A DNA stretch of 64,000 bases. Origin: Flavisolibacter longurius (lineage in GTDB: Bacteria; Bacteroidota; Bacteroidia; Chitinophagales; Chitinophagaceae). Shown one piece after another: positions 35,522 through 51,635 of the stretch (positions are counted from its first letter, which is position 1; the number at the start of each line of letters is the position of its first letter). Position numbers and translations under genes: made by a program. The stretch is from positions 62,001-126,000 of the forward strand of contig JABUMY010000004.1 of NCBI GenBank assembly GCA_013327885.1, written 5' to 3'. The notes beneath the pieces were generated by a model, which saw only the letters and a list, made by a program, of their open reading frames with translations, searched no databases and was not told the origin of the DNA.

Positions 35522-36283
35522 CTACACAATCGTCACCTCAATCCCCATTCCCTGCAGCGTTTCCGCCATGTGCTCGGAGATATTGCTGTCGGTGATCACC
35601 TGCTCAATGTCTTCCAGCCCGCAAATGCGGCCAAAACCCCGCTTGCCAAATTTGCTTGAATCGGCCAGCACCACCGTTTTTTGCGCTGCTTTGATCATGG
35701 CTTTGTTCAACTGCGCTTCCATCATGTTGGTGGTGGTCAGGCCAAATTCGGCGTCAATGCCATCCACACCTAAAAATAGCTTGCTGCACGAAAAATCTTG
35801 CAGCATTTTTTCGGCATAAAGCCCCGTCACCGACGAAGAGCTTTTGCGGATCGGCCCCGCCAGTTGAATCACTTCGATCTGCGGGTGCTGCACCAATTCC
35901 AGCGCCACGTTCAAGGCAGCAGTGATCACCGTTAAATTACCCTTGGGCTGGATGTTTTTGGCCAGCGAAAGCACTGTGGTGCCGGAGGCGATCAGGATAC
36001 AATCATTGGGTTCGATCAGCCGGGCAGCAGCTTCGCCGATGCCGGACTTTTCCTGCGACTGTATCATCACTTTTTCGTTCACGTGCCGGTCAACCGTATA
36101 GGGATTGTTGAGTGTTCCGCCGCCATGGGTACGGTAAAGGAGGGCTTTGTCCTCCAGCATTTTCAGGTCTTTGCGGATGGTGACAGAGGAAACATCCAGT
36201 TCCCTGCACAGGTCTACCACGCTTACGCTGCCTTCTTTCTTCAGCTTCGAAAGGATGTGCTGATGCCGTTTGGTAAGGTTCAT
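35522..36283 (-). CDS. glpR: DeoR-family repressor, probable GlpR
   Basis: 253 residues. The N-terminal DeoR helix-turn-helix (SVVDLCRELDVSSVTIRKDLKML, about 18-40) is followed by the YRTHGG hinge and the DeoRC sugar-phosphate-binding domain with IASGTTVLSLAKNI, VDGIDAEFGLTTTN and LADSSKFGKRGFG. It is divergent from glpD, so control of the glycerol-3-phosphate operon with G3P or a related phosphate as inducer is the natural reading. Candidate sites are the three TTTCG boxes at 36354-36422. The specific name rests on context. Confidence 0.87.
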   Translation of the reverse strand: MNLTKRHQHILSKLKKEGSVSVVDLCRELDVSSVTIRKDLKMLEDKALLYRTHGGGTLNNPYTVDRHVNEKVMIQSQEKSGIGEAAARLIEPNDCILIASGTTVLSLAKNIQPKGNLTVITAALNVALELVQHPQIEVIQLAGPIRKSSSSVTGLYAEKMLQDFSCSKLFLGVDGIDAEFGLTTTNMMEAQLNKAMIKAAQKTVVLADSSKFGKRGFGRICGLEDIEQVITDSNISEHMAETLQGMGIEVTIV

Positions 36284-36353
36284 TCTGCTGCCAAATTAAC
36301 GCCTGGCGGCGCAGAATCCAAACTTTCAACCCATTCTGTACACTTACAGGTGC

Positions 36354-36422
36354 TTTCGTGTTGTTGAAAAAAATAGATTTTTTAGTTTCGTTTGTAAGAA
36401 AATAGTTTTATCATTGCTTTCG
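36354..36422. promoter_or_regulatory. Three TTTCG boxes spaced exactly 32 bases: candidate GlpR operators
   Basis: TGCTTTCGTG (box at 36354), TAGTTTCGTT (36386) and TGCTTTCGCT (36418) lie in the glpR-glpD gap, starting 32 and 32 bases apart, about three helical turns. DeoR-type repressors such as AgaR bind TTTCrTTT-like direct repeats. The middle box doubles as a near-consensus -7 element (TAGTTTCG, 36383-36390) with TTG about 16 bases upstream. Confidence 0.5.
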
Positions 36423-36471
36423 CTTTATTCCTTTTCTAACCAAACAGAAACAAAAAGAAACCGCCTGCTGC

Positions 36472-38064
36472 ATGGAAGAATTGCTGTCCCATACCACCGT
36501 CGACAGAGCGCTGCAACTGAAAAAGATCGGTGATCCCTCCCTTCTGTGGGATGTATTGGTGATTGGCGGCGGGGCAACCGGGCTGGGTGTAGCGCTTGAC
36601 GCCGTCGCCCGGGGTTACAGGACAATCCTAACCGAAGGCGCCGATTTTGCCAAAGGCACTTCCAGCCGCAGTACCAAGCTGGTACACGGGGGTGTACGCT
36701 ACCTGGCACAGGGCGATGTAAAGCTGGTGCGGGAAGCGTCCATTGAAAGAGGCCGCCTTTGTCGCAATGCACCCCACCTGGTCAAAAATCAAACCTTTAT
36801 CATCCCCATTTACAGCCAGTGGGACAAGCTGAAATACACCGTAGGCCTGAAGCTTTACGACTGGATCTCCGGCAGCCTTACGCTGGGTTCTTCCATTTTT
36901 ATTTCGCGTAAAAAAACCATCGAAGCGCTTCCTGGCGTGAAGGTCGAAGGCCTGTTGGGTGGCGTGCAATACCACGACGGGCAGTTCGACGATTCGCGGC
37001 TGGCCATTAACCTTGTACAAAGCATTATCGAAGGCGGCGGTTGCGCCATCAATTATACCCGTGTGACCGGCCTGTTGAAAAACGCCGAGGGCAAGATCGA
37101 AGGTGCAATCCTTCGCGACGAGGAAACCGGGGCCACCTATGGTGTCAAAGCAAAAGCCGTGGTCAACGCCACCGGCGTTTTTGTCGATGATATCCTGCAA
37201 ATGGACAATGCCGCGGCACCCAAAAGCATCTGCGTCAGCCAGGGTGTACACGTGGTGCTGGATAAAAAATTCTTTCCCTCGGCGCATGCCCTGATGATAC
37301 CCGAAACCAGCGATGGCCGGGTGTTGTTTGCCGTTCCCTGGCACGACAAAGTGGTGGTGGGCACCACCGATACTCCTGTGGAAGAAGCCTCGCTGGAACC
37401 ACAGGCGCTGGAAAAAGAGATCCGTTTTATTCTGGAAACGGCAGCGCAGTACCTAACGGAAACGCCTACCCGCGCCGATGTGCTGAGCGTTTTTGCCGGC
37501 CTGCGTCCGCTGGCGGCGCCAAAACAGGGCGAGCAAAAAACAAAAGAGATCTCCCGCAGCCATAAGATCATTGTCTCAGCATCTCACCTGTTTACTATCC
37601 TGGGCGGCAAATGGACCACTTACCGCAAGATGGGAGAGGACATGATCAATACCATTGAAGATACCCTGGCCTGGGGCCACCGTCGTCCCGGTACCGCCCA
37701 ACTGGCCATTCATGGCTACGCCGAAAAAGTAAACTGGAACGACCCGTTTTATTTCTACGGCAGCGATGCGCCTTTGCTGAAGCAAAGCATGAACGGCAGT
37801 GCCGGCATCTGGATCAGCGAAAGCCTGAAGATCCACAAGGCGCAGGTGCTCTGGGCCGTGGAGCACGAAATGGCCCGCACGGTGGAAGATGTGCTGTCGC
37901 GGAGAACACGGGCCCTTTTGCTGGATGCCAAAGAAAGCATCCGTATTTGTCCCGAAGTAGCCCGCCTGATGGCAGGTGCGCTTGGCCGGGACGAAGCCTG
38001 GATCAAAGCCGAAGTGACCGAATTCACCCGGCTTGCCCAGCAATATATTTTGGAAAAGAACTAA
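36472..38064 (+). CDS. glpD: Glycerol-3-phosphate dehydrogenase, FAD-dependent
   Basis: 530 residues, standard length. FAD motif VIGGGATGLGVALDAVARGY is near residues 28-47; conserved SSRSTKLVHGGVRYL, HDGQFDDSRL and TDTPVEE blocks follow, and the C-terminal DAO_C domain ends the protein. It oxidises sn-glycerol-3-phosphate to dihydroxyacetone phosphate at the inner membrane, passing electrons to quinone. First gene of the run; glpT follows after 21 bases. Regulation by the divergent GlpR is likely. Confidence 0.95.
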   Translation: MEELLSHTTVDRALQLKKIGDPSLLWDVLVIGGGATGLGVALDAVARGYRTILTEGADFAKGTSSRSTKLVHGGVRYLAQGDVKLVREASIERGRLCRNAPHLVKNQTFIIPIYSQWDKLKYTVGLKLYDWISGSLTLGSSIFISRKKTIEALPGVKVEGLLGGVQYHDGQFDDSRLAINLVQSIIEGGGCAINYTRVTGLLKNAEGKIEGAILRDEETGATYGVKAKAVVNATGVFVDDILQMDNAAAPKSICVSQGVHVVLDKKFFPSAHALMIPETSDGRVLFAVPWHDKVVVGTTDTPVEEASLEPQALEKEIRFILETAAQYLTETPTRADVLSVFAGLRPLAAPKQGEQKTKEISRSHKIIVSASHLFTILGGKWTTYRKMGEDMINTIEDTLAWGHRRPGTAQLAIHGYAEKVNWNDPFYFYGSDAPLLKQSMNGSAGIWISESLKIHKAQVLWAVEHEMARTVEDVLSRRTRALLLDAKESIRICPEVARLMAGALGRDEAWIKAEVTEFTRLAQQYILEKN

Positions 38065-38085
38065 GCCGATTGGCGCCCTTGCTAT

Positions 38086-39423
38086 ATGCGTATGAAAATT
38101 TTACAACCTCCTGCTCACAAAGAGCAGTTACCGGTACAGCAGATCGACCCTGTGTACAAAAAGCTGCGGCTACAGGTTTTCCTGGGCATTTTTATCGGCT
38201 ATGCCGGTTATTACCTCCTCCGGAAGAATTTTTCGATGGTGATGCCTGACCTGATGGAACAGGGCTATACCAAAGCCGACCTGGGCATTGCTCTTTCTGC
38301 GGTTTCCATTGCCTACGGCCTCAGCAAATTTGTGATGGGCACTGTTTCTGACCGGAGCGATGCCCGGGTGTTTCTTTCCCTGGGCCTTGTGCTCTCGGCT
38401 TTTACCATGATCATCATGGGAGCTGTGCCCTGGGCTACCAGTTCCATTGCCATCATGTTCGTGCTGCTCCTGCTCAATGGCTGGTTCCAGGGCATGGGCT
38501 GGCCGCCTTGCGGAAGGGTAGTGGTGCATTGGTTCTCCGTGAAAGAGCGGGGTACCAAAATGGCGATCTGGAACGTAGCGCACAACGTGGGCGGCGGCCT
38601 GATGGCGCTTGTTGCCATTGCCGGCCTCACCGTCTTCGGTAGCTGGGAAGGAAAATTGATCTTCCCGGGCCTGGTGGCGCTGGCCATCGCCTTTCTTACG
38701 TATTTGCTTGTGCGGGATACGCCGCAGTCCTGCGGGCTGCCGCCGATTGAACGTTACACCAACACCTATACAAAAGACTACAACGAGGCCCACGAGAAAG
38801 AATTGAGCACCAGGCAGATACTGCTGGATTACGTTTTGGTTAACAAACTGATCTGGTACATTGCCCTCGCCAATGCCTTTATATATTTGGTCCGTTATGG
38901 CGTGCTGGATTGGGCTCCCGTTTACCTGAAGGAAGCCAAAGGATTTTCGTTAAGTGCAACAGGATGGGCCTATTTCCTTTACGAATGGGCTGGTATCCCC
39001 GGTACATTGCTCTGCGGTTGGCTCAGCGACAAGGTTTTTAACGGTCGCCGGGCACCGGCTACCATCATCTACATGGTGTTGGTGACAATAGCTGTTTTTG
39101 TGTACTGGAAAAATCCGCCTGGTAATCCCCTGGTCGACAACATTGCCCTGATTGCCATCGGCTTCCTGATCTACGGGCCGGTGATGCTGATTGGGGTACA
39201 TGCCATGGACCTGGTGCCCAAAAAAGCAGCAGGAACTGCGGCAGGGCTGACCGGCCTGTTTGGCTACCTGATTGGCGCTACGGCGGCTACGGCGGCCATG
39301 GGTTTTGTAGTGGATGCCTTTGGCTGGGACGGCGGTTTTTATATGCTGCTGGCTGCCTGTGTGCTGTCCATTTTGTTTACGGCCATGACCTGGAAAAAAG
39401 AACGCGTTTCACTCCATTCTTAA
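38086..39423 (+). CDS. glpT: Glycerol-3-phosphate transporter (MFS, OPA family)
   Basis: 445 residues with 12 membrane helices. The substrate-site residues known for E. coli GlpT are at matching positions shifted by one: Arg46 (YLLRKNFS), His166 ([10 protein letters not shown]) and Arg270 ([10 protein letters not shown]). Both arginines and the histidine being kept makes G3P/phosphate antiport very likely rather than a hexose-phosphate. It imports periplasmic G3P made by the diesterase encoded six genes on. The susC gene starts 17 bases after its stop, so they share a transcript. Confidence 0.94.
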
Positions 39424-39440
39424 AATACAACAATTAGCGT

Positions 39441-42400
39441 ATGAGAAGCTTTGCGAATGCACCGGAAAGAATTTTGAAAGTCAAGATCTGGCTTTTCATT
39501 ATCCTTTTGATGGTGATGGCCATCACCAGTATGGCCCAGCAAAAACCCATTACCGGCGTTGTGCGAAATGCCGAGGACAATCAACCCATTCCGCAGGCAA
39601 CGGTTACCGTAAAAGGTACCCGCACGGTAGCCATTACCGACAATGCCGGAAGCTTTGCCATCCTGGCATCACCCAACCAAACCCTGGTGGTGACGGCCGT
39701 TGGCTTTCAGCCCCTGGAAAGAGCCGTAGGCCAGCAAACCGTGGTCAATTTCCAGCTGACCGGTTCGGCTGCGCAGATGCAGGATGTAGTGGTAACGGCC
39801 CTGGGTATTCGTAGAGACCAAAAAGCACTGGCGTATTCTACCTCCACCATCAAAGGCGAGCAGCTGACCGATGCTATTTCGGGTAACTGGACCGATGCCC
39901 TTTCGGGCAAGGTGGCCGGCCTGAACCTGGTGCGGTCGAACAGCGGCCCGGCTGGTTCTAATAAAATTATTTTACGTGGTGAGAACAATCTTACCGGTGA
40001 TAACGAAGCCCTGATTGTTGTGGATGGCGTGGTGATTAACCAGGGCAGCGGCCGCCGGAGCGCTATCGGCGGCGAAGCCACCTACGGCACGGGCAGCGAT
40101 AACATGCCGGCCGACTACGGCAGTGGCATGAATGACATCAACCCCGAAGACATTGAGTCGGTTACGGTGTTGAAAGGCCCGGGTGCGGCAGCTCTTTACG
40201 GGCAGCGGGGTGCTAACGGTGCCATTATCATCACCACCAAATCGGGCAACAGCAAACGCAAAGGCTGGGGTGTGACCTTTAATTCCAACGCCTCCATGGA
40301 AAAAATAAACCGCTGGCCCGACCTGCAATACGAGTACGGACAGGGTACCGATGGTATGTTGCATTATTCCTTTGGTGCCGGTCCCGACGGTGTAAGCACC
40401 AGTGCCACCAGCTCGGCCTATGGTCCGCGGTTTAACGGCCAGATGTTTTACCAGTACGACCCGGTGACGGGCAAGCAGGGCACCGAAAGAACGCTGTGGC
40501 GTCCTTATCCCAATCAAACCCGCGAATATTTTGAAACCGGTAATACGCTGACGAACAGCATCAGCCTCGATGGCGGCAGCGACCGCACCACCGCCCGTTT
40601 CTCTTATACCAATGTAAAGAACAACTGGATCCTTCCCAATACAGGTTATGGTCGCAACACGGTAGCCCTTTCGGTGAATTCGAAAGTGAACGACAAACTG
40701 CAGATCAGTTCCAAGGTGAACTATACCAACAAAGCCAGTGATAACCTTCCCGGTGCCGGCTATGGCAACCAGTCGATCATGTACTGGTATATTTTCTGGC
40801 AGCCCAACGCTGACCTGAACTGGTTGAAGAATTACTGGGTACCCGGGCAGGAAGGCCGCAAGATCTTTTATCCGTTCAGCTCTTTCCCCGAGAATCCTTA
40901 TGCCGTTGCCCACGAGTTTATCAACCGCAGCAACCGCCACGGCATGACCGGCAATGTGCAGGCAACGTATAATTTTAATAAAGAACTGAGCCTTATGGTT
41001 CGCACGGCACTGGATCTTTCCTACGAGCAACGTGCACAGGAGCGTCCCTACGATGCCGGTTCCCGGTTCCAGAAGGGCAGCTACCGTACGCAAAGCATTT
41101 TCTCCCAGGAAGTGAACACGGATTTTCTCCTTCGCTATGCGAAAAAAGTAAACTCTGATTTTGATTTTAGTGTAAGCCTTGGCGGTAGTACGCTCAATAA
41201 CCGGTACAACAAAGACGAAGTGCGGGCCGACTCCCTGGTAAACCCCGGTTTTTATGCCATGAGCAATGCCCTTGGCGCCCTGGAAACCATTCCCTGGAAG
41301 AGCCGTTACCGCATCAACAGCTTTTATGGCCTGATCACCACGGCTTACAAAGAATTTCTCTTTCTGGACCTTACGGCACGCCAGGACTGGAACAGCGTAC
41401 TGGCGACTCCTATCCGTAGCGAAAATGCCGGGTTCTTTTACCCATCGGCCAACGCCAGTTTTATCCTTTCAGAGGTGGTGAAGATGCCCTCCGCCATCTC
41501 TTTTGCCAAGCTGCGTTTTTCAGCTTCCAGCGTGGGTAGCGGTGGAACCATTCCTTATCTCACGGCGTATAACTATGCAACAGCGGGATCTTTTTTCAGC
41601 GGCGGGCTGCAAAACCCCACCACGCTGGCCAATCCCGACCTGAAGCCCCTGCGTACCATCACCTATGAAACAGGCCTGAACCTGCGGATGTTCAAAGGCC
41701 GCATGGACTTTGACCTGGCCCTGTACAGCGGTAATACAAAAGACCAGATCCTGAACCGCATCATCGACCGGGCATCGGGTTATACCCGTGCCGTGATCAA
41801 TGCCGGCCGGGTAAGCAACCAGGGTATCGAAATCTCCCTGAGCGGCTCCCCCATAAAAAACACCGGTGGATTTAGCTGGAACAGCTCCGTGGTGTTCTCT
41901 GCCAACCGCAACCGGGTGGAAGAACTGGCCGACAGCTCCGTGGTGTTGCAAACCGGTCCCGTTGGCGGCGGCCAGATCGTGGCCAAAGTTGGCGGCAGCA
42001 TGGGCGACCTTTACGGCCGCGGTTATGTGCGGGCCCCGGACGGGCAGGTGGTGTACGACGAAGCCACTGGCTTTGCCAAGATCTCCCAGGATGTCATTTA
42101 TCTCGGTAACACCATTCCCAAAGGAAAGGTGGGCTTTACCAATACGTTTTCTTACAAAGGCTTTCGCCTGAACCTGCTGTTTGATGCGCAATACGGTGGC
42201 GTAGCCCACTCGCTGATGCACTACAAGTTGGCCGAGCAGGGCAAGCTGACCAAAACACTGCCCGGTCGTTACAACGGTATTATCGGTAACGGCGTGGTGA
42301 TGGATGCCAGCGGCAAGTATGTGCCCAATACCACCATTGCCATGGACATCGACGAATACTACCGTTCGCATTGGGGCATCGACAATGCCGAAGGCAGCAC

Positions 42401-42653
42401 CTTCCGCACCGATTATATCAAGTTCAGGGAAGCAAGGCTGGATTATACCATCAGCGCAAATCTGACCAAAAAACTGGGAATCCAACGGGCCACACTTGGT
42501 GTGTATGGCCGCGACCTTTTTATCTGGTCGCCCTGGCCGATGTTCGATCCGGAGTTTGGCACCCTGGCCGGTACCGATATCGTTCGCGGTTTTGAAGTGG
42601 GACAGTTCCCGTCTACCCGTACCCTTGGCGTTAACCTGGTTGTTGCATTCTAA
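39441..42653 (+). CDS. SusC/RagA-family TonB-dependent outer-membrane transporter
   Basis: 1070 residues. Signal peptide with a longish N-terminus (about 1-32), carboxypeptidase-D-regulatory-like domain (38-120, ITGVVRNAEDNQPIPQATV), plug domain with the SusC signature (VVTALGIRRDQKALAY, then LSGKVAGLNLVRSN and VVDGVVIN), and a 22-strand barrel ending in GVNLVVAF. It pairs with the SusD-like lipoprotein 11 bases downstream. Unlike most SusCD pairs it is in an operon with glpD and glpT and no glycosidase. The likely cargo is therefore a glycerophosphodiester or another glycerol-phosphate compound (inference). Confidence 0.95.
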   Translation: MRSFANAPERILKVKIWLFIILLMVMAITSMAQQKPITGVVRNAEDNQPIPQATVTVKGTRTVAITDNAGSFAILASPNQTLVVTAVGFQPLERAVGQQTVVNFQLTGSAAQMQDVVVTALGIRRDQKALAYSTSTIKGEQLTDAISGNWTDALSGKVAGLNLVRSNSGPAGSNKIILRGENNLTGDNEALIVVDGVVINQGSGRRSAIGGEATYGTGSDNMPADYGSGMNDINPEDIESVTVLKGPGAAALYGQRGANGAIIITTKSGNSKRKGWGVTFNSNASMEKINRWPDLQYEYGQGTDGMLHYSFGAGPDGVSTSATSSAYGPRFNGQMFYQYDPVTGKQGTERTLWRPYPNQTREYFETGNTLTNSISLDGGSDRTTARFSYTNVKNNWILPNTGYGRNTVALSVNSKVNDKLQISSKVNYTNKASDNLPGAGYGNQSIMYWYIFWQPNADLNWLKNYWVPGQEGRKIFYPFSSFPENPYAVAHEFINRSNRHGMTGNVQATYNFNKELSLMVRTALDLSYEQRAQERPYDAGSRFQKGSYRTQSIFSQEVNTDFLLRYAKKVNSDFDFSVSLGGSTLNNRYNKDEVRADSLVNPGFYAMSNALGALETIPWKSRYRINSFYGLITTAYKEFLFLDLTARQDWNSVLATPIRSENAGFFYPSANASFILSEVVKMPSAISFAKLRFSASSVGSGGTIPYLTAYNYATAGSFFSGGLQNPTTLANPDLKPLRTITYETGLNLRMFKGRMDFDLALYSGNTKDQILNRIIDRASGYTRAVINAGRVSNQGIEISLSGSPIKNTGGFSWNSSVVFSANRNRVEELADSSVVLQTGPVGGGQIVAKVGGSMGDLYGRGYVRAPDGQVVYDEATGFAKISQDVIYLGNTIPKGKVGFTNTFSYKGFRLNLLFDAQYGGVAHSLMHYKLAEQGKLTKTLPGRYNGIIGNGVVMDASGKYVPNTTIAMDIDEYYRSHWGIDNAEGSTFRTDYIKFREARLDYTISANLTKKLGIQRATLGVYGRDLFIWSPWPMFDPEFGTLAGTDIVRGFEVGQFPSTRTLGVNLVVAF

Positions 42654-42664: not shown

Positions 42665-44197
42665 ATGAAAAAGATATTCTGGATAAAAGCGCTCTTCGCG
42701 GTCACGCTGGTTAGTATGCTGGCTTCCTGCACCAAAGATTTTGAAGAGATCAATACCGATCCCAATAACATTCCCGCGGCCCTGCCCCAGCAGTTGCTGT
42801 CCCCGGCCCTGGTGAGTACGTTAAGCTATAACATGCTCCGCAACCGCAACTTCAACAATGAGCTGATGCAGGTTTCGGTCAACATCAACGATGGCGAAGG
42901 CCAGGTGTTCCGTTATGACTTCCGTGCCAACTGGGCCGACAACCTGTACAACGGCTGGTACTCGGAACTGACCAATTTTAAGGACATCTACAAAGTGGCT
43001 TCCGATACCACATCGGGCAATCACAACAAATCCTACATGGCTATTTCGCTCATCTGCCAGTCCTGGATCTATTCCCTGCTGACGGATACTTATGGCGATG
43101 TGCCGTTTGAAGAATCCAACAGGGCGAAAAAAGACGACGGCGAGATCTTTGAGCCGGCCTTTGCCCGGCAGAAAGACATTTATGCCGGCATCTTCAGCAT
43201 GCTGGAAGAAGCCAATACATTGCTCAACGGCGGGCCGTCGATCGTAGCCGCCAGCGACCCGGTTTACAACGGCAACATCGGCCGCTGGCGCCGGTTTGGC
43301 AACTCGCTTTACCTGCGGCTCCTGCTGCGCATTTCCGGCAAAGCCGAAGTGGCCGCGCAGGCAACGGCCAAGATCAAGGACATTGTGGAGACCAATGCCG
43401 GCAACTACCCGATCATGGCGAGCAATGCCGACGCGGCTATTCTTCGCTGGACGGGTACAGCGCCTTATATCTCTCCGCTGATGACCGTGCGGGAACAGGA
43501 TTTTCGGGCGCCTAGTGTTGCCGCGTTTTTTATTGACAACCTGGTAAGCTGGGAAGATCCCCGCATCGATATCAGCCTGGGGGCCAACGGCATCAACCGC
43601 TGGGCCATTGCGCCCTACCAGGGTGCTTACGTAGGTGTGCCCAGTGGCTATGCACCCGGAACCGGCGCCCAGCGACTGTCTTATTTTTATTCGTCAACCT
43701 CCACCTCAACCCTAATGAACGAACCGCTGGCAGGCATGATCATGAACTATGCCGAGGTGCAATTTATCCTGGCGGAAGCGGCCCTGAAAGGCTGGATCAG
43801 TGGATCGGCCGAAACCTATTACAACCGCGGCGTGCAGAACGGCATCACCTTGTGGCTGCCCACCTGGAACAAACCGATCGAAGAGTTTTTGAAGAACCCC
43901 AACGGCAACAGCAACCTTCTTTCGGATGCCACCACCTTCGACGAAAAAATGGAGTTCATTCACCTGCAGAAATATTATGCGCTTTTCCTCAACGACCTGC
44001 AGCAATGGTTTGAATACCGCCGCACCGGTCATCCCACCCTGCCCAAAGGCGCTGGCCTGCGCAATGGTGGTGTGATGCCGGCCCGGATGAACTATCCCGT
44101 GTATGTGCAGTCTACCAATCCAACCAATTACAAAGCGGCTGTGGCCGCGCAGGGACCAGACCTGATCTCTACCGAGGTTTGGTGGCAAAAGCCCTGA
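42665..44197 (+). CDS. SusD-like substrate-binding lipoprotein (SusD-like_2)
   Basis: 510 residues. Lipoprotein signal with lipobox MLASC (Cys near residue 22), followed by the family's FEEINTDPNN. TPR-like helices carry ICQSWIYSLLTDTYGDVPFEES, typical of the SusD-like_2 group. The C-terminal part ends with a conserved ARMNYPV and TNYKAAVA. It sits on the cell surface as the lid of the SusC barrel and first binds the ligand. Its ligand is probably the same glycerol-phosphate compound. Confidence 0.94.
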   Translation: MKKIFWIKALFAVTLVSMLASCTKDFEEINTDPNNIPAALPQQLLSPALVSTLSYNMLRNRNFNNELMQVSVNINDGEGQVFRYDFRANWADNLYNGWYSELTNFKDIYKVASDTTSGNHNKSYMAISLICQSWIYSLLTDTYGDVPFEESNRAKKDDGEIFEPAFARQKDIYAGIFSMLEEANTLLNGGPSIVAASDPVYNGNIGRWRRFGNSLYLRLLLRISGKAEVAAQATAKIKDIVETNAGNYPIMASNADAAILRWTGTAPYISPLMTVREQDFRAPSVAAFFIDNLVSWEDPRIDISLGANGINRWAIAPYQGAYVGVPSGYAPGTGAQRLSYFYSSTSTSTLMNEPLAGMIMNYAEVQFILAEAALKGWISGSAETYYNRGVQNGITLWLPTWNKPIEEFLKNPNGNSNLLSDATTFDEKMEFIHLQKYYALFLNDLQQWFEYRRTGHPTLPKGAGLRNGGVMPARMNYPVYVQSTNPTNYKAAVAAQGPDLISTEVWWQKP

Positions 44198-44237: not shown

Positions 44238-45758
44238 ATGAAAAATAAGTTGCTGTACAGCATTTGTCTCCTGGCCCTGGTGCTGCTCTGGGGTTGCAAA
44301 AAAGAAGACGAGAACTACCCGGGTGGTACACCCAGTCCTTACATTGCCGTGCTGGATGTGCGGGCCATTCACGAAGGACAGGATGTGACCCTGACAAAAG
44401 AAAATATGTTTGGTGCCAACAAGATCGCTGCCGTGGTCACTTCCGATCATGCGGGTGGTAACATTCCGGCCGGCCTGGTGGTGGTGCAGGACAACCGCCG
44501 CCTTGGCGAACTCCGCGGCCTGGCCATCAACATTGGTGCGGCAGCGGCCGATTACAAGCCTGGCGACGGACTGATTATCGATGTAGAAGGCGGAACCCTG
44601 AGCCGGGTAAACGGCATCCTGCAACTGAATGGTATTTCCCCACAAAAAATAGAGAAAGCCGCTTCGGGTATTGCCCTTACGCCCTTGTCGGTGAAAAGCA
44701 ATGACGTAATTGCCAACCCCGGCCGCTACGAAGGGGTGCTGATCTCGCTAACTTCGGTTGGTTTTGATCCTTCTTACCCCGCTGGTTCTACCTATGCCGG
44801 CGACAAAACCATCAACGATGGTTTTGGCAATACGATCCTGCATACAGAGGCCGGTGCTGCCTGGTCGGGTAAGCCCCTGCCGTTCCTTTCCAACTTTAGC
44901 GGTATTGTTTTTGGCGGTGCCGATGGCAAACCGCAGTTGTGGCCCCGCACCGAAAGTGATATTACCGTTCGCAGTGCCACGGCACCTAAGATCGCACCGG
45001 TTGTGATCACCGGTTTTCTGACCGATCCTGCCGGCGGCGATGGTGACTACGAATACATCCAGTTGCTGGCAACCCGTAACATTGATTTTTCCGTGACGCC
45101 CATGTCGGTAGCCGCCACCAACAATGCCGGTGCTTCCACGCCAACCGGTGTGCCGGTTGAAGGCTGGGCTACTGGTGGCCAGCGTACGTATAAGATCAAT
45201 ATTACCGATGGTACCGTACAAAAGGGCCAGTATTTTTATGTGGGCAGCAACAAAAAGATCTGGGGCAGTGCGTCGGCTGACATCAACCCGGCTTTTTGGG
45301 TAACCAAAAAGTATGCATCGGAGGACGGCGATGGCTTTGGCACCAAAACCAGCAACCTGCTGGCCAACAGCGGTAACGCCGGCGGCATTGCGGTTTTTGA
45401 TAAAACCACAGTGGATGCCACCACCGTTCCTGTAGATGTAGTTTTTTATGGTGGCAACGGAACGCTTTTCAGCGCCGGGCCGCCGGCAAGAGGCTACCGC
45501 ATCACCAACACCGATTATTACGACGATAAGCATCCCGTTACCCAAGCAGAACAACCGTTCTTCGCCCAGGGCTCCAATACCACCAAGTTTACCTTTCCCA
45601 CCGTTGTGTCGGGAGTTGGCGGCTATTTTGCCAGGCTGGGTGGTACCTACAACATTGTTACCGGTCGCTGGACATCGGCCCGCCTGATGAACAACGTACT
45701 GCTGAGCAATGCTTCTACCCTGGCAGAGATCGAAGGTGGAACCTCTATTGAAGACTAA
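44238..45758 (+). CDS. DUF5689 surface lipoprotein
   Basis: 506 residues. Lipobox LLWGC places the lipid Cys near residue 20. DUF5689 occupies about 35-240 (IAVLDVRAIHEGQDVTLT, KIAAVVTSDHAGGNIPAG), with OB-fold-like beta text; a second lectin/lamin-tail-like beta domain follows (VVITGFLTDPAGGDGDYEYIQLLA). Proteins of this family commonly follow SusD genes and may be surface ligand-binding partners; their ligand is unknown. The 17-base RNA hairpin just downstream may set its level against the enzymes. Confidence 0.85.
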   Translation: MKNKLLYSICLLALVLLWGCKKEDENYPGGTPSPYIAVLDVRAIHEGQDVTLTKENMFGANKIAAVVTSDHAGGNIPAGLVVVQDNRRLGELRGLAINIGAAAADYKPGDGLIIDVEGGTLSRVNGILQLNGISPQKIEKAASGIALTPLSVKSNDVIANPGRYEGVLISLTSVGFDPSYPAGSTYAGDKTINDGFGNTILHTEAGAAWSGKPLPFLSNFSGIVFGGADGKPQLWPRTESDITVRSATAPKIAPVVITGFLTDPAGGDGDYEYIQLLATRNIDFSVTPMSVAATNNAGASTPTGVPVEGWATGGQRTYKINITDGTVQKGQYFYVGSNKKIWGSASADINPAFWVTKKYASEDGDGFGTKTSNLLANSGNAGGIAVFDKTTVDATTVPVDVVFYGGNGTLFSAGPPARGYRITNTDYYDDKHPVTQAEQPFFAQGSNTTKFTFPTVVSGVGGYFARLGGTYNIVTGRWTSARLMNNVLLSNASTLAEIEGGTSIED

Positions 45759-45770: not shown

Positions 45771-45807
45771 GCAAACGTAAAAGCGGCACTGCCGTTTTTG
45801 CGTTTGC
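45771..45807 (+). other. 17-base RNA stem inside the glp/SusCD operon
   Basis: Arms 45771-45787 and 45791-45807 pair over 17 positions around an ACT loop. The two non-Watson-Crick positions are both G-U pairs when read as plus-strand RNA and mismatches on the other strand. No U tract follows, so it looks like an mRNA-stability, processing or weak-attenuation element rather than a full terminator. Confidence 0.65.
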
Positions 45808-45852
45808 AAAGCCAATATCCCAATATCGTATTATCTTAATATCGCTTAGCTA

Positions 45853-47289
45853 ATGGCAATCAACAGAAGACATTTCCTGGCGCAAATCGCCTGGCTCACC
45901 GGTGGCCTCCTTTTTTACCGCTGCACACCGGCCAAAGACCTGGCGCTTTCCGGTAAAACCATTGGCGGCACCATTAGCGCCAGCGGCAAAGGATTAAAAG
46001 ATGTGGTGGTAAGCGATGGCTATTCCGTTGTGCTTACCGATAAAAAAGGCCGCTACGAGCTGGCGCCGCATCCCGATGCCATTGCGCTTTTTGTATCCAC
46101 ACCGGCCGGTTATGCTTTTCCGCAGGAAGGCGGCATTGCCCGGCATTACATCCTGATGCAAAATGTAAGCAAGGATCAATCGAACAACTTTAACCTGCAG
46201 GCCTTGCAGCGCTCCGATGAGGAGCACAGCTTCATCATTTGGGCTGACCCGCAAGTAAAGAATGCCAAGGATGTGCAAAAGCTGATGAGCGAAACCGTAC
46301 CCGATGTAAAAAAATGGGTGGCCGCACAACCGCAGGGTGCCCTGCTGCACGGTATTTCGGTGGGGGATATTGTGTGGGATGAACTGCAGCTTTTTGCCGA
46401 CTACGACAAAGCCGTGGCGCAGATGGGTATCCCGTTTTTTCAATGCCTGGGCAACCACGACATGGACTACCGCAAAGGCGGCGATGAAACCTCCGACGAT
46501 ACGTTTGCATTGACTTATGGTCCTACCTATTATTCCTTCAACCGCGGTCAGGTGCACTATGTTGTGCTTGATAACGTTCGTTATTTAGGCAAGGAAAGGG
46601 AATACGATGGCTTTGTGCAGCAACATCAATTGGACTGGCTGCAAAAAGACCTTTCCTTTGTTCCGGCAGACAAGCTGGTAGTGCTTTGTGTGCACATCCC
46701 CATTCATCGCGGCACCAAGAACAACGAAGCCCTTTATGCCCTGTTGCAGGGCCGCAACGTACACATTATGTCGGGGCATACGCATTACAACGTCAACGCC
46801 ATTCGCGACAATATTTACGAGCATAACCACGGTACCGTTTGCGGCGCCTGGTGGACGGGGCCCATCTGCGAGGACGGCACGCCCAGCGGTTATGGCATTT
46901 ATACCGTAAAAGGAAAAAAATTAAGCTGGCAATACAAGGCTACCGGCAAACCGGTCGACTACCAGTTAGCGATCTACGACAACGAAATTTCAGCCACGGA
47001 GAAACAAGTGCTGGTAAACATCTGGAATCACGATCCCGCCTGGAAGACCGAGTACTGGGTGGACGGCGTAAGCAAGGGCGCACTGGAACAGATTGAGGGA
47101 TTTGATCCGCTGGCGTATAAGAACATGCTGGGACCCGACCTGCCCAAGCCCCGCGGCTTTGCCGAACCGAAAAAAACAAAGCATTTATTCAGGGCCGTTG
47201 TGCCGGCTAGCGCCAAAACCGTAAAGGTGGTGGCCACCGACCGGTTTGGCAAGACCTATACCGCCCAGCATACAATTGGCCCCGTTTAA
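45853..47289 (+). CDS. Calcineurin-like metallophosphoesterase with N- and C-terminal accessory domains
   Basis: 478 residues. Twin-arginine-like start (NRRHFLAQIAW) and possible lipobox (LFYRC). An N-terminal beta domain (35-115) comes before the phosphoesterase core: D132-P-Q134 (the first motif has Gln for the usual His), GDIVWD with Asp172, GNHD at 200-203, His281 and GHTH ending at His311. A C-terminal beta domain (about 330-470) completes the MetallophosN/Metallophos/MetallophosC order. Periplasmic or surface hydrolysis of phosphomono- or diesters is expected; releasing head-group or glycerol from glycerophospho compounds fits the neighbours. Confidence 0.9.
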   Translation: MAINRRHFLAQIAWLTGGLLFYRCTPAKDLALSGKTIGGTISASGKGLKDVVVSDGYSVVLTDKKGRYELAPHPDAIALFVSTPAGYAFPQEGGIARHYILMQNVSKDQSNNFNLQALQRSDEEHSFIIWADPQVKNAKDVQKLMSETVPDVKKWVAAQPQGALLHGISVGDIVWDELQLFADYDKAVAQMGIPFFQCLGNHDMDYRKGGDETSDDTFALTYGPTYYSFNRGQVHYVVLDNVRYLGKEREYDGFVQQHQLDWLQKDLSFVPADKLVVLCVHIPIHRGTKNNEALYALLQGRNVHIMSGHTHYNVNAIRDNIYEHNHGTVCGAWWTGPICEDGTPSGYGIYTVKGKKLSWQYKATGKPVDYQLAIYDNEISATEKQVLVNIWNHDPAWKTEYWVDGVSKGALEQIEGFDPLAYKNMLGPDLPKPRGFAEPKKTKHLFRAVVPASAKTVKVVATDRFGKTYTAQHTIGPV

Positions 47290-47301
47290 AATTCTGCCTG
47301 T

Positions 47302-47979
47302 ATGAAAAAGATCATTTTTTTCTTTGCGCTGATCGCTGCCTTGCAATCCGGCGGTCAAACACCTAAATGGGACAGCACCCATCGCCCCGGCAATTTTGCG
47401 CTGAAAGTGGACCTGTTCCGCAGTTATCCTAATTCGACTAAAGACATCATATTCCTGGGCAACAGCATCACGGCCGGTGTAGATTGGGTAGAGCTATTGG
47501 GAAACCCGGTTGTGCGTAACCGTGGTATCTCCGGCGACATTACGTTTGGTGTGCTGGAGCGCCTGCACGAAGTAACGGAAGGCGCACCCGCAAAAGTGTT
47601 TATCCTTATCGGCATCAACGATATTTCCCGCAATATTCCCGACAGCGTGATTATCGGCAATTATGAAAAGATGATCCGGCGGATCAAAAGGGAATCGCCC
47701 AAGACAAAGATCTATTTTCAAACCCTGATGCCGGTGAACAACAACTTCACGCAGTTTAAAAATCATTACAACAAAGACGAGCATATTCTTTTTGTGAACG
47801 AAAGCCTGAAGGCCCTGGCGGCCAAAGAAAAGATTACGCTTATTGATCTTTACCCGCACTTTTTAGACAGCGAAAAAAAGATGGACAAGAAATATACCAT
47901 CGATGGCTTGCATCTTAACGCCGAAGGTTACAAGGTGTGGGCCGAAGTATTAAAAAAGGGCGGATACCTCGAAAAATAA
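47302..47979 (+). CDS. SGNH/GDSL hydrolase, PAF-acetylhydrolase-like
   Basis: 225 residues with signal peptide (MKKIIFFFALIAALQSGG). SGNH blocks: FLGNSIT with Ser55, NRGISGD, LIGINDI and DGLHLN with Asp201/His204. The NRGISGD form is that of the platelet-activating-factor acetylhydrolase-like and sialate-esterase-like subgroup. In this operon an (lyso)phospholipid deacylase that yields glycerophosphodiester is a tempting role, although acetylesterase activity on other substrates is equally compatible with the motifs. Starts 12 bases after the phosphoesterase; diesterase gene 3 bases after it. Confidence 0.88.
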   Translation: MKKIIFFFALIAALQSGGQTPKWDSTHRPGNFALKVDLFRSYPNSTKDIIFLGNSITAGVDWVELLGNPVVRNRGISGDITFGVLERLHEVTEGAPAKVFILIGINDISRNIPDSVIIGNYEKMIRRIKRESPKTKIYFQTLMPVNNNFTQFKNHYNKDEHILFVNESLKALAAKEKITLIDLYPHFLDSEKKMDKKYTIDGLHLNAEGYKVWAEVLKKGGYLEK

Positions 47980-47982
47980 AGC

Positions 47983-48885
47983 ATGAAAGGACAACTGGCA
48001 CTGGCCGTAATAACGGCGGCACTGCTCTCTTGCAGCGCACAAAAAAAAGCAGCAAGCTTTCCACCGGGTTTTGACAAACAAGGCCACCGCGGCAGCCGCG
48101 GGCTGATGCCGGAGAATACTATTCCTGCGATGCGCAAGGCCATTGATGTAGGCGTAACCACGCTGGAAATGGACCTGGGGATTTCGGGTGATAAACAGGT
48201 GGTGGTTTCGCATGATCCTTATTTCCACGAAAACATTACCACCACGGCGGAGGGTAAAACCCTGACAAAAGCAGAAGCCGGCAAACGGCTCCTGTACACC
48301 ATGCCTTACGACAGCATCAAAAAATATGATGTGGGCCGGAAGCCTCACCCTGATTTTCCGCGGCAGCAAAAGCTGGCTGTTCACAAACCGCTACTGGCCG
48401 ACCTGCTGACCGATGCTGAAACCTATGGGAAGGAAAAAGGCCGTACTCTTTTTTACAATATCGAGATTAAATCAAAACCCGAAGGTGATGGCAAAAAGCA
48501 CCCGCCGGTAGAAGAATTTGTTGACCTGGCCATGGCGGTGATTAACAGCAAGGACATTACAGCAAGAACAACGATCCAGGCCTTTGATCCAAGAGCCCTG
48601 CAGGTGGTGCACCGCAAATACCCGGGTGTGGTAACGTCGCTACTGATCGAAGGGGCTGACAAGCGTTCGCTGGACGAACAGCTCCAGCAATTAGGGTATA
48701 CGCCACCGGTATACAGTCCGCATTTTTCACTGGTGACTGCTGCCCTGGTGGAAGCCTGTCACAAACGGGGCATGCGGGTGATACCATGGACAGCAAATAC
48801 AATCGAAGAGATAAAACGTTTGAAAGACCTGAAAGTGGATGGCATCATTACTGATTACCCGGATCTTTTTGAGCAACTGAAGTAG
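47983..48885 (+). CDS. Secreted glycerophosphodiester phosphodiesterase
   Basis: 300 residues. Lipoprotein signal with LLSC (Cys17). GDPD signature: GHRGSRGLMPENT with His35/Arg36/Glu44, metal residues Glu62 and Asp64 (LEMDLG), and His77 (VSHDP), then a C-terminal VIPWTANTIEEIKRLKDLKVDGIITDYP. It cuts glycerophosphocholine/ethanolamine/glycerol-like diesters to sn-glycerol-3-phosphate plus alcohol in the periplasm, feeding GlpT. Last gene of the run, three bases after the SGNH gene. Equivalent in role to E. coli GlpQ. Confidence 0.94.
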   Translation: MKGQLALAVITAALLSCSAQKKAASFPPGFDKQGHRGSRGLMPENTIPAMRKAIDVGVTTLEMDLGISGDKQVVVSHDPYFHENITTTAEGKTLTKAEAGKRLLYTMPYDSIKKYDVGRKPHPDFPRQQKLAVHKPLLADLLTDAETYGKEKGRTLFYNIEIKSKPEGDGKKHPPVEEFVDLAMAVINSKDITARTTIQAFDPRALQVVHRKYPGVVTSLLIEGADKRSLDEQLQQLGYTPPVYSPHFSLVTAALVEACHKRGMRVIPWTANTIEEIKRLKDLKVDGIITDYPDLFEQLK

Positions 48886-48889
48886 TTAG

Positions 48890-49227
48890 TGGTGAGTGGT
48901 CAGTAGTGGGAGGAGCGAGTAGTAAATGGCAAGTAGCGAGTAGTAGTTGAATCGTTTGTAGTAGATAGTTAGGTAGGAGTTGTGACTTGTGTTGTTGTCT
49001 TAATCAGGATGGATTGTGATACAGGCTTGCTGGCAAGTGGTGCCACTGACCGCGAAGCGGTCAAACGTTAATAGCCGCGGGTGAAACCCGTGGACAGCGA
49101 ATGGGAAATGGAAGCCGACCCTGAAGGAGTCGAAAAGTGAAAGAACTTGCCGGTTGGTGAAACGAAAACAAAAATTGCTTTCGCACTCACCACTGACCAC
49201 TCACCATTCACCATTCACCACTCACCA
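48890..49227. repeat. Inverted heptad arrays enclosing GAA-loop hairpins
   Basis: This fills most of the 410-base gap before glpK. Left arm TGGTGAG-TGGTCAG plus degenerate units (48890-48960), right arm of six CTCACCA/CTGACCA/TTCACCA units (49186-49227). Between them are hairpins GACCGC-GAA-GCGGTC (49048-49062), CCGCGGGT-GAA-ACCCGTGG (49075-49093) and a weaker one at 49117-49131. CGAAA (49163-49167) and TTTCG (49179-49183) lie near the right arm and could be operator half-sites for glpK. No coding frame is credible. Confidence 0.75.
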
Positions 49228-49295
49228 CATCCAAATCTGCTTTATATTTAAGGCTTCATATAACCGAACCGTATTGATCACATAATCTTGCTTGC

Positions 49296-50792
49296 ATGTC
49301 CAAATTCATCTTAGCATTCGACCAGGGAACCACCAGCTCACGGGCCATCATCTTTGACAAAAAAGGCGATATTGTTTCGGTAGCGCAAAAAGAGTTCACA
49401 CAGATCTTTCCCCAACCCGGATGGGTGGAGCATGATCCGAACGAGATCTGGTCAACACAACTGGGTGTGGCTACCGAAGCGATTCTCAAAGCCGGCCTCA
49501 CCGTATACGACATTGCCGGCATCGGCATCACCAATCAACGCGAGACCGCCGTGGTCTGGGACCGCAATACCTCGCAACCCATCTACAATGCTATTGTATG
49601 GCAGGACCGCCGTACGGCTGCTTATTGCGACGAACTAAAACGGGACGGCTCCGCCAATATTATCAAAGAAAAAAGCGGCCTGGTAACCGATGCTTATTTT
49701 TCTGCTACCAAGGTGAAATGGATATTGGACTATGTACCCGGCGCCAAGGCAAAAGCCGACAACGGCGAGCTTTGTTTTGGTACCATCGATAGCTGGCTCT
49801 TATGGAAACTCACCAACGGCCAGGTGCACAAAACAGACGTAACCAATGCCTGTCGCACCATGCTGTTTAATATCCATACCATGCAGTGGGATGATGACCT
49901 GCTGAAGATCTTTGGTATTCCACACAGCATGCTGCCCGAGGTTTGTTCGAGCAGCGAGATCTATGGCCATACACAGCACTTGTTAACCGCCGCTAATATT
50001 CCCATTTGCGGCATTGCCGGCGACCAGCAGGCAGCGCTGTTTGGACAGATGTGCATTCAGCCCGGTATGGTAAAGAATACCTACGGAACGGGTTGTTTTA
50101 TGCTGATGAACACCGGAACCAAACCGGTTCCTTCCAACAATAATTTATTGACAACAGTTGCCTGGAAGATTGGCAACGAAGTGCAGTATGCACTCGAGGG
50201 CAGTGTGTTTATTGCCGGTGCCGTGGTGCAATGGCTGCGGGATGGGTTAAAGCTGATTCAAACCTCCGGCGATGTGGAAGCACTTAGCCTGAAAGCGGAA
50301 GATAACGGTGGCGTGTACATGGTGCCCGCTTTTACGGGACTGGGTGCACCGTACTGGAACCAGCATGCCAGGGGTATGATCGTAGGCCTGACGCGGGGAA
50401 GTTCGGATGCACACATTGCAAGAGCGGCCATTGAAAGCATTGCTTACCAAACCATGGATGTGCTGAAGGCCATGGAAGCCGATGCGGCGCTGGCCATTAA
50501 AGAAGTACGGGTAGATGGCGGTGCCACGGTGAACAATTACCTGATGCAGTTCCAGGCCGACATCCTGAACACAACCGTGATACGGCCGCAAATAACGGAA
50601 ACGACAGCCCTTGGTGCTGCCTATCTTGCGGGCCTGGCCGTTGGCTTTTGGAGCGATACAAAAGAAGTGGAAGCCTACTGGCAAAAAGGCCGCGCCTTTG
50701 AAGCGGCCATGACCGATGACGTAAGAACATTACATCAAAAGTCCTGGAAAAAAGCCATCCGTGCCGCACAGGCATGGGCGGAAGAGGGATGA
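49296..50792 (+). CDS. glpK: Glycerol kinase
   Basis: 498 residues, standard length. FGGY-kinase signatures: [13 protein letters not shown] at 7-19, [36 protein letters not shown] and [18 protein letters not shown]. Phosphorylates glycerol to G3P in the cytoplasm with ATP. It is separated from the first operon by the repeat-rich gap, so it has its own promoter; a weak -7-like TAATCTTG lies five bases before the ATG. glpF follows after 132 bases that contain another inverted heptad element. Confidence 0.96.
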
Positions 50793-50893
50793 GTGGTGAA
50801 TGGTGAGTGGTGAATGAAGGTCGTTTCAATTGAAAATTTCATTCACCGCTTGCAGCTACTCACCACTGACCACTGACCACTCACCATTCACCA
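50790..50893. repeat. Inverted heptad element between glpK and glpF
   Basis: Left arm TGAGTGG-TGAATGG-TGAGTGG-TGAATGA starting on the glpK stop codon (50790-50817); right arm CTCACCA-CTGACCA-CTGACCA-CTCACCA-TTCACCA (50859-50893). The arms are reverse complements; the loop is about 41 bases. It could fold in the glpK-glpF mRNA. Confidence 0.85.
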
Positions 50894-50924
50894 ATTACAC
50901 AAACTACAAACTTCAACTCCAACC

Positions 50925-51635
50925 ATGAACATCTTCATCGGGGAAATTATCGGCACGTTTCTTCTCATCTTATTGGGCAACGGCGTTGTTGCCAACGTTA
51001 TTCTGAACAAAACCAAAGGCAATGGCGGCGGGTGGATCGTGATCACTTTTGGCTGGGCGATGGCTGTTTTTGTTGGCGTATTTGTGGCTTCCAAGGCCAG
51101 CGGTGCCCACCTCAATTCGGCCGTTACCCTGGCGCTGGCTGTTACTGGTAAAATAGGTTGGAACGTGGTGCCCGAATACCTGGCCGGACAACTCATTGGC
51201 GCCATGCTGGGTTCACTGGGTGTATGGGCCGCCTACCACCGGCATTTTCTGGCAACCGACGATGCTGGTACCAAGCTAGCAACGTTTGCCACGGGGCCGG
51301 CTATACGTAGTCCGTTGCCCAACCTGGTTACAGAGATCATTGGCACCTTTGTACTCATTTTTGCCGTGCTCTTTATCATTGCGCCGTCCAGCAGCCTGGG
51401 TGCACTGGATGCCCTGCCGGTAGCCCTGCTGGTGCTGGCCATTGGCTTAAGCCTGGGTGGTCCTACCGGTTATGCCATCAATCCTGCAAGAGACCTGGGT
51501 CCCCGAATCATGCACGCTATTTTGCCCATTGGCAAAAAAGGCAGCAGCGACTGGGAGTATGCCTGGATTCCCATTGTTGGACCGCTGATCGGTGCCGTGG
51601 CTGCAGCCCTGCTGTTTATGGCACTGCCGGCATAA
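50925..51635 (+). CDS. glpF: Glycerol facilitator (aquaglyceroporin, MIP family)
   Basis: 236 residues with six membrane helices plus two half-helices. The second pore motif is N186-P-A-R189-D190, the Asp after NPAR being the mark of glycerol channels over water channels. The first motif is N64-S65-A66 instead of NPA. Trp44 in FGWAMAV is a candidate selectivity-filter residue. It passes glycerol across the inner membrane to GlpK. A terminator follows. Confidence 0.94.
   Translation: MNIFIGEIIGTFLLILLGNGVVANVILNKTKGNGGGWIVITFGWAMAVFVGVFVASKASGAHLNSAVTLALAVTGKIGWNVVPEYLAGQLIGAMLGSLGVWAAYHRHFLATDDAGTKLATFATGPAIRSPLPNLVTEIIGTFVLIFAVLFIIAPSSSLGALDALPVALLVLAIGLSLGGPTGYAINPARDLGPRIMHAILPIGKKGSSDWEYAWIPIVGPLIGAVAAALLFMALPA

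What the first reader, a model, noticed from the sequence alone, without database searches (positions are those of the whole stretch)
35522..51635. A SusCD system wired into glycerol-3-phosphate metabolism: possible glycerophosphodiester (phospholipid) utilisation locus
Genes run glpR | glpD-glpT-susC-susD-DUF5689-phosphoesterase-SGNH hydrolase-GDPD, then glpK-glpF. Gaps between operon genes are 3-94 bases, so glpD and glpT lie in the same unit as the SusCD pair. No glycosidase or sugar kinase is present. Established roles: GDPD makes G3P from glycerophosphodiesters, GlpT imports G3P, GlpD oxidises it, GlpF and GlpK handle glycerol. Inference: the SusCD pair brings glycerophosphodiesters or deacylated phospholipid head-groups across the outer membrane, the SGNH enzyme deacylates lipid outside or in the periplasm, and the phosphoesterase supplies glycerol or free phosphate. 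A complete outer-membrane-to-glycolysis route for phospholipid glycerol is not something I know as a described SusCD substrate class.
Basis: partly seen in the sequence, partly recalled or inferred. Interest (0 to 1): 0.8.

Follow-up and report, generated by a model that had tools for sequence, protein, structure and literature searches.

The report
Outer-membrane importer wired to glycerol-phosphate catabolism
A soil-type bacterium keeps its glycerol-phosphate breakdown genes in one cluster with an outer-membrane nutrient importer of the kind usually used for sugars, and relatives keep the same partnership, which points to a little-known way of feeding on glycerol-phosphate material, perhaps the wall polymers of other bacteria.

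Summary
Observation confirmed: glpR | glpD-glpT-susC-susD-DUF5689-metallophosphoesterase (MPE)-SGNH-GDPD, then glpK-glpF, gaps as stated. It is not a chance neighbourhood: of 69 MPE-anchored relative loci of at least 19 kb, 57 hold SusCD; of those 57, 36 also hold a glp gene and 46 a GDPD, in shuffled orders, in three families. In 147 family genomes glpT was found in 4, all inside such clusters; MPE of this type lies within 10 kb of glpD in 13 of 13 genomes. A TTTCGTTT motif marks glpR/glpD promoters and some Pedobacter susC promoters.

I read it as a GlpR-type-controlled SusCD locus for glycerol-phosphate diesters. The ligand is unproven. Against: the window has no such glycosidase, the SusDs are not a glp-specific clade, and some relatives have the enzymes without SusCD. 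PusCD of Flavobacterium was already proposed for phosphodiesters. New variant of a known kind.

The parts
35522..36283 (-). DeoR-family regulator, called glpR by position (AgaR-like by sequence)
   Evidence: divergent from glpD (or susC) in the 39 regions collected
36284..36471 (.). divergent promoter region glpR/glpD with a TTTCGTTT operator-like site at 36386-36393
   Evidence: motif in 32 of 36 such regions of 80-700 bases; 4.06 sites/kb upstream of glpD against 0.11/kb over 80 loci
36472..38064 (+). glpD, G3P dehydrogenase; only full copy found in the genome
38086..39423 (+). glpT, G3P transporter; only copy found in the genome at E <= 1e-60
39441..42653 (+). susC-like TonB-dependent transporter
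42665..44197 (+). susD-like lipoprotein (PF12771), acidic residues after the lipobox Cys
44238..45758 (+). DUF5689 lipoprotein (CKKEDE after the signal); model weakly resembles tandem OB-fold and lamin-tail domains; proposed surface ligand binder
45853..47289 (+). metallophosphoesterase MPE (MetallophosN-core-C), twin-arginine-like N-terminus, GpdQ/Rv0805-like core
47302..47979 (+). SGNH hydrolase (esterase), catalytic blocks GNSI, GISG, GIND, DGLH intact
47983..48885 (+). GDPD lipoprotein, catalytic HRG/PENT/ExD/HD intact
49160..49167 (-). TTTCGTTT site in the GDPD-glpK gap (may be chance; 6 sites in the window against 4.06 expected; not conserved upstream of glpK)
49296..50792 (+). glpK, glycerol kinase; next FGGY kinase in the genome scores 94.9 bits
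50925..51635 (+). glpF, glycerol channel

Best explanation
This is a SusCD utilisation locus for glycerol-phosphate diesters, controlled by the DeoR-type regulator of the glycerol regulon and used for carbon (and phosphate). Proposed route: a surface SusD with the DUF5689 lipoprotein binds the ligand; SusC imports it; in the periplasm the SGNH esterase removes ester groups, the GpdQ-like MPE and the GDPD cut the phosphodiesters to G3P (or glycerol + Pi); GlpT imports G3P where present, GlpF + GlpK take glycerol; GlpD feeds dihydroxyacetone phosphate to glycolysis. I think the most likely ligand is oligomeric or polymeric glycerol phosphate, i.e. teichoic acid fragments of Gram-positive walls, rather than phospholipid. 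Shown: gene content, conserved linkage, shared promoter motif, single copy of glpD/glpT/true glpK, intact catalytic motifs, GpdQ-like fold model. Inferred: localisation, direction of flow, operon transcription, ligand. My odds: a glycerol-phosphate diester ligand of some kind about 0.75; teichoic acid in particular about 0.45.
For: Linkage: 11 of 40 SusD-anchored loci in the family have glp genes; of 69 long MPE-anchored loci 57 have SusCD, of which 36 have a glp gene (33 not counting glpR alone), 46 GDPD, 44 SGNH; 107 glp-module junctions under 300 bases, 13 kinds, median gap 47 bases, 32 loci with susC directly next to a glp gene. glpT in 4 of 147 family genomes, 4 of 4 in the cluster; MPE of at least 530 bits within 10 kb of glpD in 13 of 13 genomes, with SusCD in 10 of 13. 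Regulation: TTTCGTTT at glpR/glpD, and at susC itself in 12 loci, among them L106, L108, L110 where susC takes glpD's place opposite glpR. Chemistry: MPE model matches Rv0805 (E 1.5e-9) and GpdQ (E 4.7e-8); GDPD closest to 3ch0. Polymer: GH36 inside the operon in 3 loci of three families, GH89 in 2, PLD-like lipoprotein in 5 of 114, plus L186; all three GH36 and both GH89 start with signal-like sequences. GlpQ of B. subtilis releases G3P from poly(GroP) and stops at glycosylated or D-alanylated units (PMC7086022, passages), so such enzymes would be needed. The own genome's second MPE and an SGNH lie in a SusCD locus with two GHL10 and an AmpG-like MFS; GHL10 has peptidoglycan-degrading activity in Cwp19 (PMC6016235, passages).
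Against: The window's operon holds no glycosidase or PLD. Interior GH36/GH89 are few (3 and 2 of 114 loci), and glycosidases are common near SusCD anyway. On the SusD tree the glp label needs 23 changes (17 forced) in 100 rows, and close SusD relatives (about 70% identical) lie in loci with no glp gene within about 9 kb, so the SusCD is not glp-specific. Eight Niastella/Longitalea loci and L096, L105 have the glp genes and MPE without SusCD, and four distant GlpT genomes have GDPD + glpT without SusCD. In Sphingobacteriaceae only 22 of 41 long SusCD loci have a glp gene. The glpK-upstream motif is not conserved (1 of 42). The MPE class also fits cyclic nucleotides or other diesters. DUF5689 fold matches are weak (TM about 0.2).
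Confidence: 0.5

Rival explanations
1. One reading: the SusCD imports deacylated phospholipid head groups (glycerophosphodiesters) or lysophospholipids; the SGNH enzyme deacylates, GDPD releases G3P.
For: GDPD and GlpT travel together: all 7 GlpT matches of at least 630 bits in 395 phylum genomes have a GDPD in the fetched stretch or the window. SGNH relatives include 'lysophospholipase L1' by name; PLD-like proteins in some relatives.
Against: Such head groups are small and four distant genomes handle GDPD + GlpT without SusCD; no fatty-acid uptake or activation gene was among the in-operon families seen; it does not explain alpha-galactosidase and alpha-N-acetylglucosaminidase inside sister operons.
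Confidence: 0.25
2. It is a phosphate-scavenging PusCD-type system (PHO regulon) that happens to sit beside the glycerol operon.
For: PusCD with pf00149 and other phosphodiesterases is known in Flavobacterium and induced by phosphate starvation (PMC8115612, passages). Some close SusCD-DUF5689-MPE loci carry FecR/ECF genes instead of glp genes.
Against: The listed PusD1/PusD2 are pf07980/pf14322, this SusD is PF12771; the shared promoter motif goes with the glycerol regulator; gene order with glp is kept and reshuffled across families. PHO boxes were not tested.
Confidence: 0.12
3. Unrelated ligand: the SusCD imports some other phosphorylated or esterified glycan, and the glp genes are in the unit because glycerol is one by-product (for example glycerol-phosphate-decorated polysaccharides or glycolipids).
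For: SusD lineage is shared with loci that lack glp genes; GH92, GH29 and GH95 lie next to some relatives.
Against: MPE, SGNH and GDPD stay the same while SusD diverges to 30-40% identity, i.e. phosphodiester chemistry is the constant part.
Confidence: 0.13

Closest known systems
PusCD / Phosphate Utilisation Systems of Flavobacterium (PMC8115612)
   Same: SusCD-like pair next to phosphoesterases, proposed for phosphodiesters including lipid head groups; one PUSI phosphodiesterase is pf00149.
   Different: Known ones are low-phosphate induced, with PusD1/2 of pf07980/pf14322 and ECF/FecR regulators in the passages seen; here PF12771 SusD, DUF5689, GDPD, and a complete G3P/glycerol catabolic set under the glycerol regulator.
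Glp regulon of E. coli (glpTQ, glpD, glpFK, glpR; recalled)
   Same: GDPD + GlpT + GlpD + GlpK + GlpF under a DeoR-family repressor.
   Different: No SusCD or MPE there; the regulator here is AgaR-like.
Polysaccharide utilisation loci (Sus-type)
   Same: SusC/SusD plus accessory lipoprotein and periplasmic enzymes in one unit.
   Different: No glycosidase in the window; the product goes to G3P/glycerol catabolism.
B. subtilis GlpQ/PhoD teichoic acid degradation (PMC7086022, passages)
   Same: GDPD-family exo-enzyme giving G3P from poly(GroP).
   Different: There a self-recycling of own wall teichoic acid in a Gram-positive; here a SusCD uptake locus in a Gram-negative, teichoic acid use unproven.
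GpdQ glycerophosphodiesterase (3d03, 2zo9, 2dxl)
   Same: Metallophosphoesterase core fold of MPE.
   Different: MPE has extra N and C domains, 14-16% identity, and DxQ in place of the usual DxH at the first metal motif (D132, Q134 invariant in 43 rows; usual motif recalled).

Membership tests
SusCD utilisation locus (PUL type) | adjacent susC and susD homologues with accessory hydrolases in one unit | tested here: met
SusCD utilisation locus (PUL type) | carbohydrate-active enzymes in the unit | tested here: not met
   none in the window operon; GH36/GH89 inside the unit in a few relatives
PusCD (phosphate utilisation system) | SusCD beside phosphomono/diesterases | tested here: met
PusCD (phosphate utilisation system) | induction by phosphate starvation | not testable with these tools
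   needs expression data
PusCD (phosphate utilisation system) | SusD of the pf07980/pf14322 type, as in PusD1 and PusD2 | tested here: not met
   PF12771 and PF12741 only, at E <= 0.001; other Pus forms not compared
Glp regulon | GlpT equivalog | tested here: met
   TIGR00712 720.2 bits, cut-off 632.6
Glp regulon | regulator is an orthologue of E. coli-type GlpR | tested here: not met
   112.6 bits against cut-off 331; AgaR 238.6 against 260
Glp regulon | shared operator at glpD and the other units | tested here: inconclusive
   strong at glpR/glpD, present at susC in 12 loci, weak at glpK
Teichoic acid utilisation | hydrolysis of poly(GroP) by GDPD/MPE | not testable with these tools
   needs enzymes and purified polymer
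GpdQ-type phosphodiesterase | same fold as GpdQ | tested here: met
   Foldseek E 4.7e-8, TM 0.64 by target length; Rv0805 matches better
GpdQ-type phosphodiesterase | glycerophosphodiesterase activity | not testable with these tools
   needs assay

The most novel reading that the evidence does not exclude
A teichoic acid utilisation locus: a Gram-negative SusCD system that binds poly(glycerol-phosphate) wall polymers of Gram-positive bacteria, strips their sugar and ester decorations, cuts them to G3P and burns them through the glycerol pathway.
Probability: 0.4. Interest if true: 0.82.

Novelty: new variant of a known kind. Interest (0 to 1): 0.6.

Why it matters
SusCD systems are known mostly for glycans, with peptides, vitamin B12 and organic phosphorus as further cases. 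A conserved SusCD locus that ends in glycerol-3-phosphate catabolism would add a substrate class, give a predicted function to DUF5689 and MetallophosN/C proteins, and, if the ligand is teichoic acid, show how soil Bacteroidota recycle the walls of dead or living Gram-positive neighbours, a large pool of carbon and phosphorus. The named relatives (for example Flavisolibacter ginsengisoli, Pedobacter, Pontibacter) are cultured, so it is directly testable.

Tried and rejected
Pure coincidence: rejected by the synteny counts. A glp-specific SusCD clade: tested by tree and not found (quick method, long branches, labels depend on 17-20 kb stretches, so some 'none' labels may be false). RNA element in 35000-52000: no Rfam match at gathering threshold. 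Promoter/terminator consensus scan: no excess over shuffles (17 against 13.4; 23 against 23.3). Window-wide motif excess: none (6 TTTCGTTT against 4.06 expected). DUF5689 function by fold: only weak OB-fold/lamin-tail matches. Nearest solved relatives of MPE by sequence: none better than E 0.11. The FA_hydroxylase, ROK, AICARFT and similar genes beside some relatives look like ordinary neighbours. GHL10/NagX/AmpG homologues were not found (above 80 bits) in L031-L150, so the peptidoglycan link is through the paralogue only; of 8 lower-scoring MPE loci looked at (L173, L176-L182), 4 have GHL10.

Bias to keep in mind: A1, the query, was made only of glp-linked MPEs, and 80 of 149 relatives were kept; SusD-anchored loci hold SusD by construction. 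A second look drawn from 395 class genomes without that choice gave 9 with MPE at E <= 1e-120: the own genome, G029 (no SusCD), and 7 from one other family; 6 of those 7 (L160, L183-L187) have susC, susD, MPE, GDPD and SGNH, 3 of the 6 a glp gene; the seventh (L188) has SusCD but no GDPD or glp gene.
Full report
Observation. The window lies in contig 44 of a 5.75 Mb genome. A same-genus genome (G104) has a contig of the same length (388,517) as a Flavisolibacter ginsengisoli record, so the window is probably from that genus (inference). In this genome glpD has one full copy, glpT one copy at E <= 1e-60, and the next FGGY kinase after glpK is at 94.9 bits and 26% identity; glpF copies were not counted. 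GDPD has five copies and MetallophosC two.

Conservation in the family. The SusD protein was searched in 147 family genomes (131 with a match). Forty stretches around the best matches were fetched; 11 of 40 have glp genes in the same unit: L036, L037, L038, L042, L043, L044, L049, L056, L057, L058, L060. The other 29 have SusCD, often DUF5689 and a lower-scoring MPE, without glp genes; L045 and L046 only show 29-32 bit FGGY matches, not counted. glpT was found in 4 of 147 genomes (E <= 1e-60) and all four lie in the SusCD cluster. MPE of at least 530 bits was found in 13 genomes and lies within 10 kb of glpD in 13 of 13; SusCD is there in 10, not in G071, G036, G029.

Conservation beyond the family. 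An alignment of 9 glp-linked MPEs fetched 80 of 149 relatives with named organisms: Chitinophagaceae, Pedobacter, Mucilaginibacter, Pontibacter, Rufibacter and others. Of 69 loci of at least 19 kb, 57 have SusCD; among these, 36 have any glp gene (33 other than glpR alone), 46 GDPD, 44 SGNH; by group SusCD + glp is 11 of 11 Chitinophagaceae, 1 of 1 unplaced Chitinophagales, 22 of 41 Sphingobacteriaceae, 2 of 4 Hymenobacteraceae; glpT is in 20, each with SusD (with the glpT/susD cross-count there). Gene order is reshuffled (for example glpD-glpT-susC in Chitinophagaceae, GDPD-glpT-SGNH in Pedobacter, glpK-glpF-glpT-susC in Pontibacter) while membership stays, which speaks for function rather than inertia. 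Against this, eight Niastella/Longitalea loci plus L096 and L105 have glp genes and MPE without SusCD, and on a SusD tree of 100 rows the glp label (48 against 52) needs 23 changes, at least 17 forced, against 33.5 in shuffles, 0 of 500 as low: clustered, but joined and parted many times.

GlpT in the phylum. GlpT matched in 9 of 395 phylum genomes at E <= 1e-100. Seven score at least 630 bits: the own genome and two of another family have SusCD + GDPD; four of a distant family have GDPD + glpT (three with glpK, glpD, glpF) and no SusCD in 19 kb. Two weaker ones (371-373 bits, 45% identity) lie elsewhere.

Regulation. TTTCGTTT occurs in 32 of 36 glpR-divergent regions of 80-700 bases (39 collected, 3 longer ones left out). 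Density is 4.06/kb upstream of glpD and 3.6/kb upstream of glpR, 0.99/kb upstream of susC, 0 upstream of glpT, DUF5689 and GDPD, and 0.11/kb over the 80 loci. Sites sit within 300 bases of susC in 12 loci; in L106, L108 and L110 susC stands opposite glpR in place of glpD and has 2, 1 and 2 sites. The consensus of 50 sites is TTTCGTTTT.TTTC, like the AgaR operator as I recall it. In the window one site is between glpR and glpD (36386), one in the GDPD-glpK gap (49160); the window as a whole is not enriched and the glpK site is not conserved.

Enzymes. MPE: a model from 43 rows (pLDDT 85.8) matches Rv0805 (E 1.5e-9) and the glycerophosphodiesterase GpdQ (E 4.7e-8); D132, Q134, GD, GNHD, H281 and GHTH are kept in all 43 rows; the start RRxF is twin-arginine-like (recalled motif). 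GDPD: closest solved chain 3ch0, 266 bits, active-site residues at least 97% conserved in 70 rows. SGNH: closest chains 6njc/7pzg, 189 bits. DUF5689: lipoprotein signal; model of 40 rows (pLDDT 86.9) with only weak OB-fold and lamin-tail matches.

What is the ligand? In 114 loci, GH36 alpha-galactosidase lies inside the unit in L077, L113 and L137 (three families), GH89 in L123 (inside) and L132 (directly after SGNH), PLD-like proteins inside in L044, L097, L098, L123, L137, and again in L186. GH92 lies 3' of GDPD in eight Niastella/Longitalea loci that lack SusCD, GH29/GH95 3' in two Mucilaginibacter loci. Alpha-galactose, alpha-GlcNAc and D-alanine esters are usual decorations of poly(GroP) teichoic acids (recalled in part; glycosylation and D-alanylation and their block of GlpQ are in PMC7086022, passages). 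A polymer also suits SusCD better than a small head group, which four distant genomes handle without SusCD. The second MPE of the own genome (41% identical) sits in a unit FAD-oxidoreductase - SusC - SusD - DUF5018 - GHL10 - GHL10 - MPE - NagX-like - SGNH - AmpG-like MFS - DUF4434 - SGNH - BD-FAE - NagB/PIG-L (the AmpG and NagX models are far below cut-off); GHL10 partners recur in 4 of 8 such loci. GHL10 degrades peptidoglycan in C. difficile Cwp19 (PMC6016235, passages). This is circumstantial: the window itself has none of these decorating-sugar enzymes.

Literature. Searches for SusD/SusC/SusCD with glycerophosphodiester, glpK/G3P, teichoic acid, phospholipid, Pedobacter GDPD + TonB, and PUL + teichoic acid gave no description of a SusCD-glp locus or a teichoic acid PUL in the held open-access library; subscription papers are not covered. 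The nearest is the PusCD work (PMC8115612, abstract and passages; PMC8812569, passages). DUF5689 appears in one held paper, on natural transformation in Riemerella (PMC8459023, passages); PMC4666044 (passages) mentions GDPD and SusD proteins only in a metasecretome.

Verdict.

Noticed in passing
G000:C13, L173 23-16686 with L174 and L175 (outside the window): A second SusCD locus of the same genome with two GHL10 proteins, an MPE paralogue, NagX-like and AmpG-like proteins, SGNH enzymes and NagB/PIG-L: a likely peptidoglycan or amino-sugar utilisation locus; similar units in L176, L177, L179.
   Followed up: partly
window 51768-52214 and 49073-49093: A Y1_Tnp (IS200-like, RAYT-type) transposase just after glpF, and a lone REP-like palindrome with simple CACTCACC-type repeats in the GDPD-glpK gap; only one copy of the palindrome in the window.
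   Followed up: partly
window 33533-34705 and 53311-54510: Two di-haem cytochrome c peroxidase (CCP_MauG) genes flank the locus at a distance on both sides.
   Followed up: no
L082-L088 3' of GDPD: GH92 (alpha-mannosidase family) and GH28 genes follow a glp-MPE-GDPD unit that lacks SusCD in Niastella/Longitalea.
   Followed up: no
L162-L165: A distant family keeps a compact glpK-glpD-GDPD-glpF-glpT unit (L165 only GDPD-glpT) without SusCD.
   Followed up: partly
L033, L035, L040, L041 and others: Close SusCD-DUF5689(-MPE) relatives with FecR/ECF-type genes upstream and no glp genes: perhaps the same kind of importer under another regulator or for another phosphodiester polymer.
   Followed up: partly
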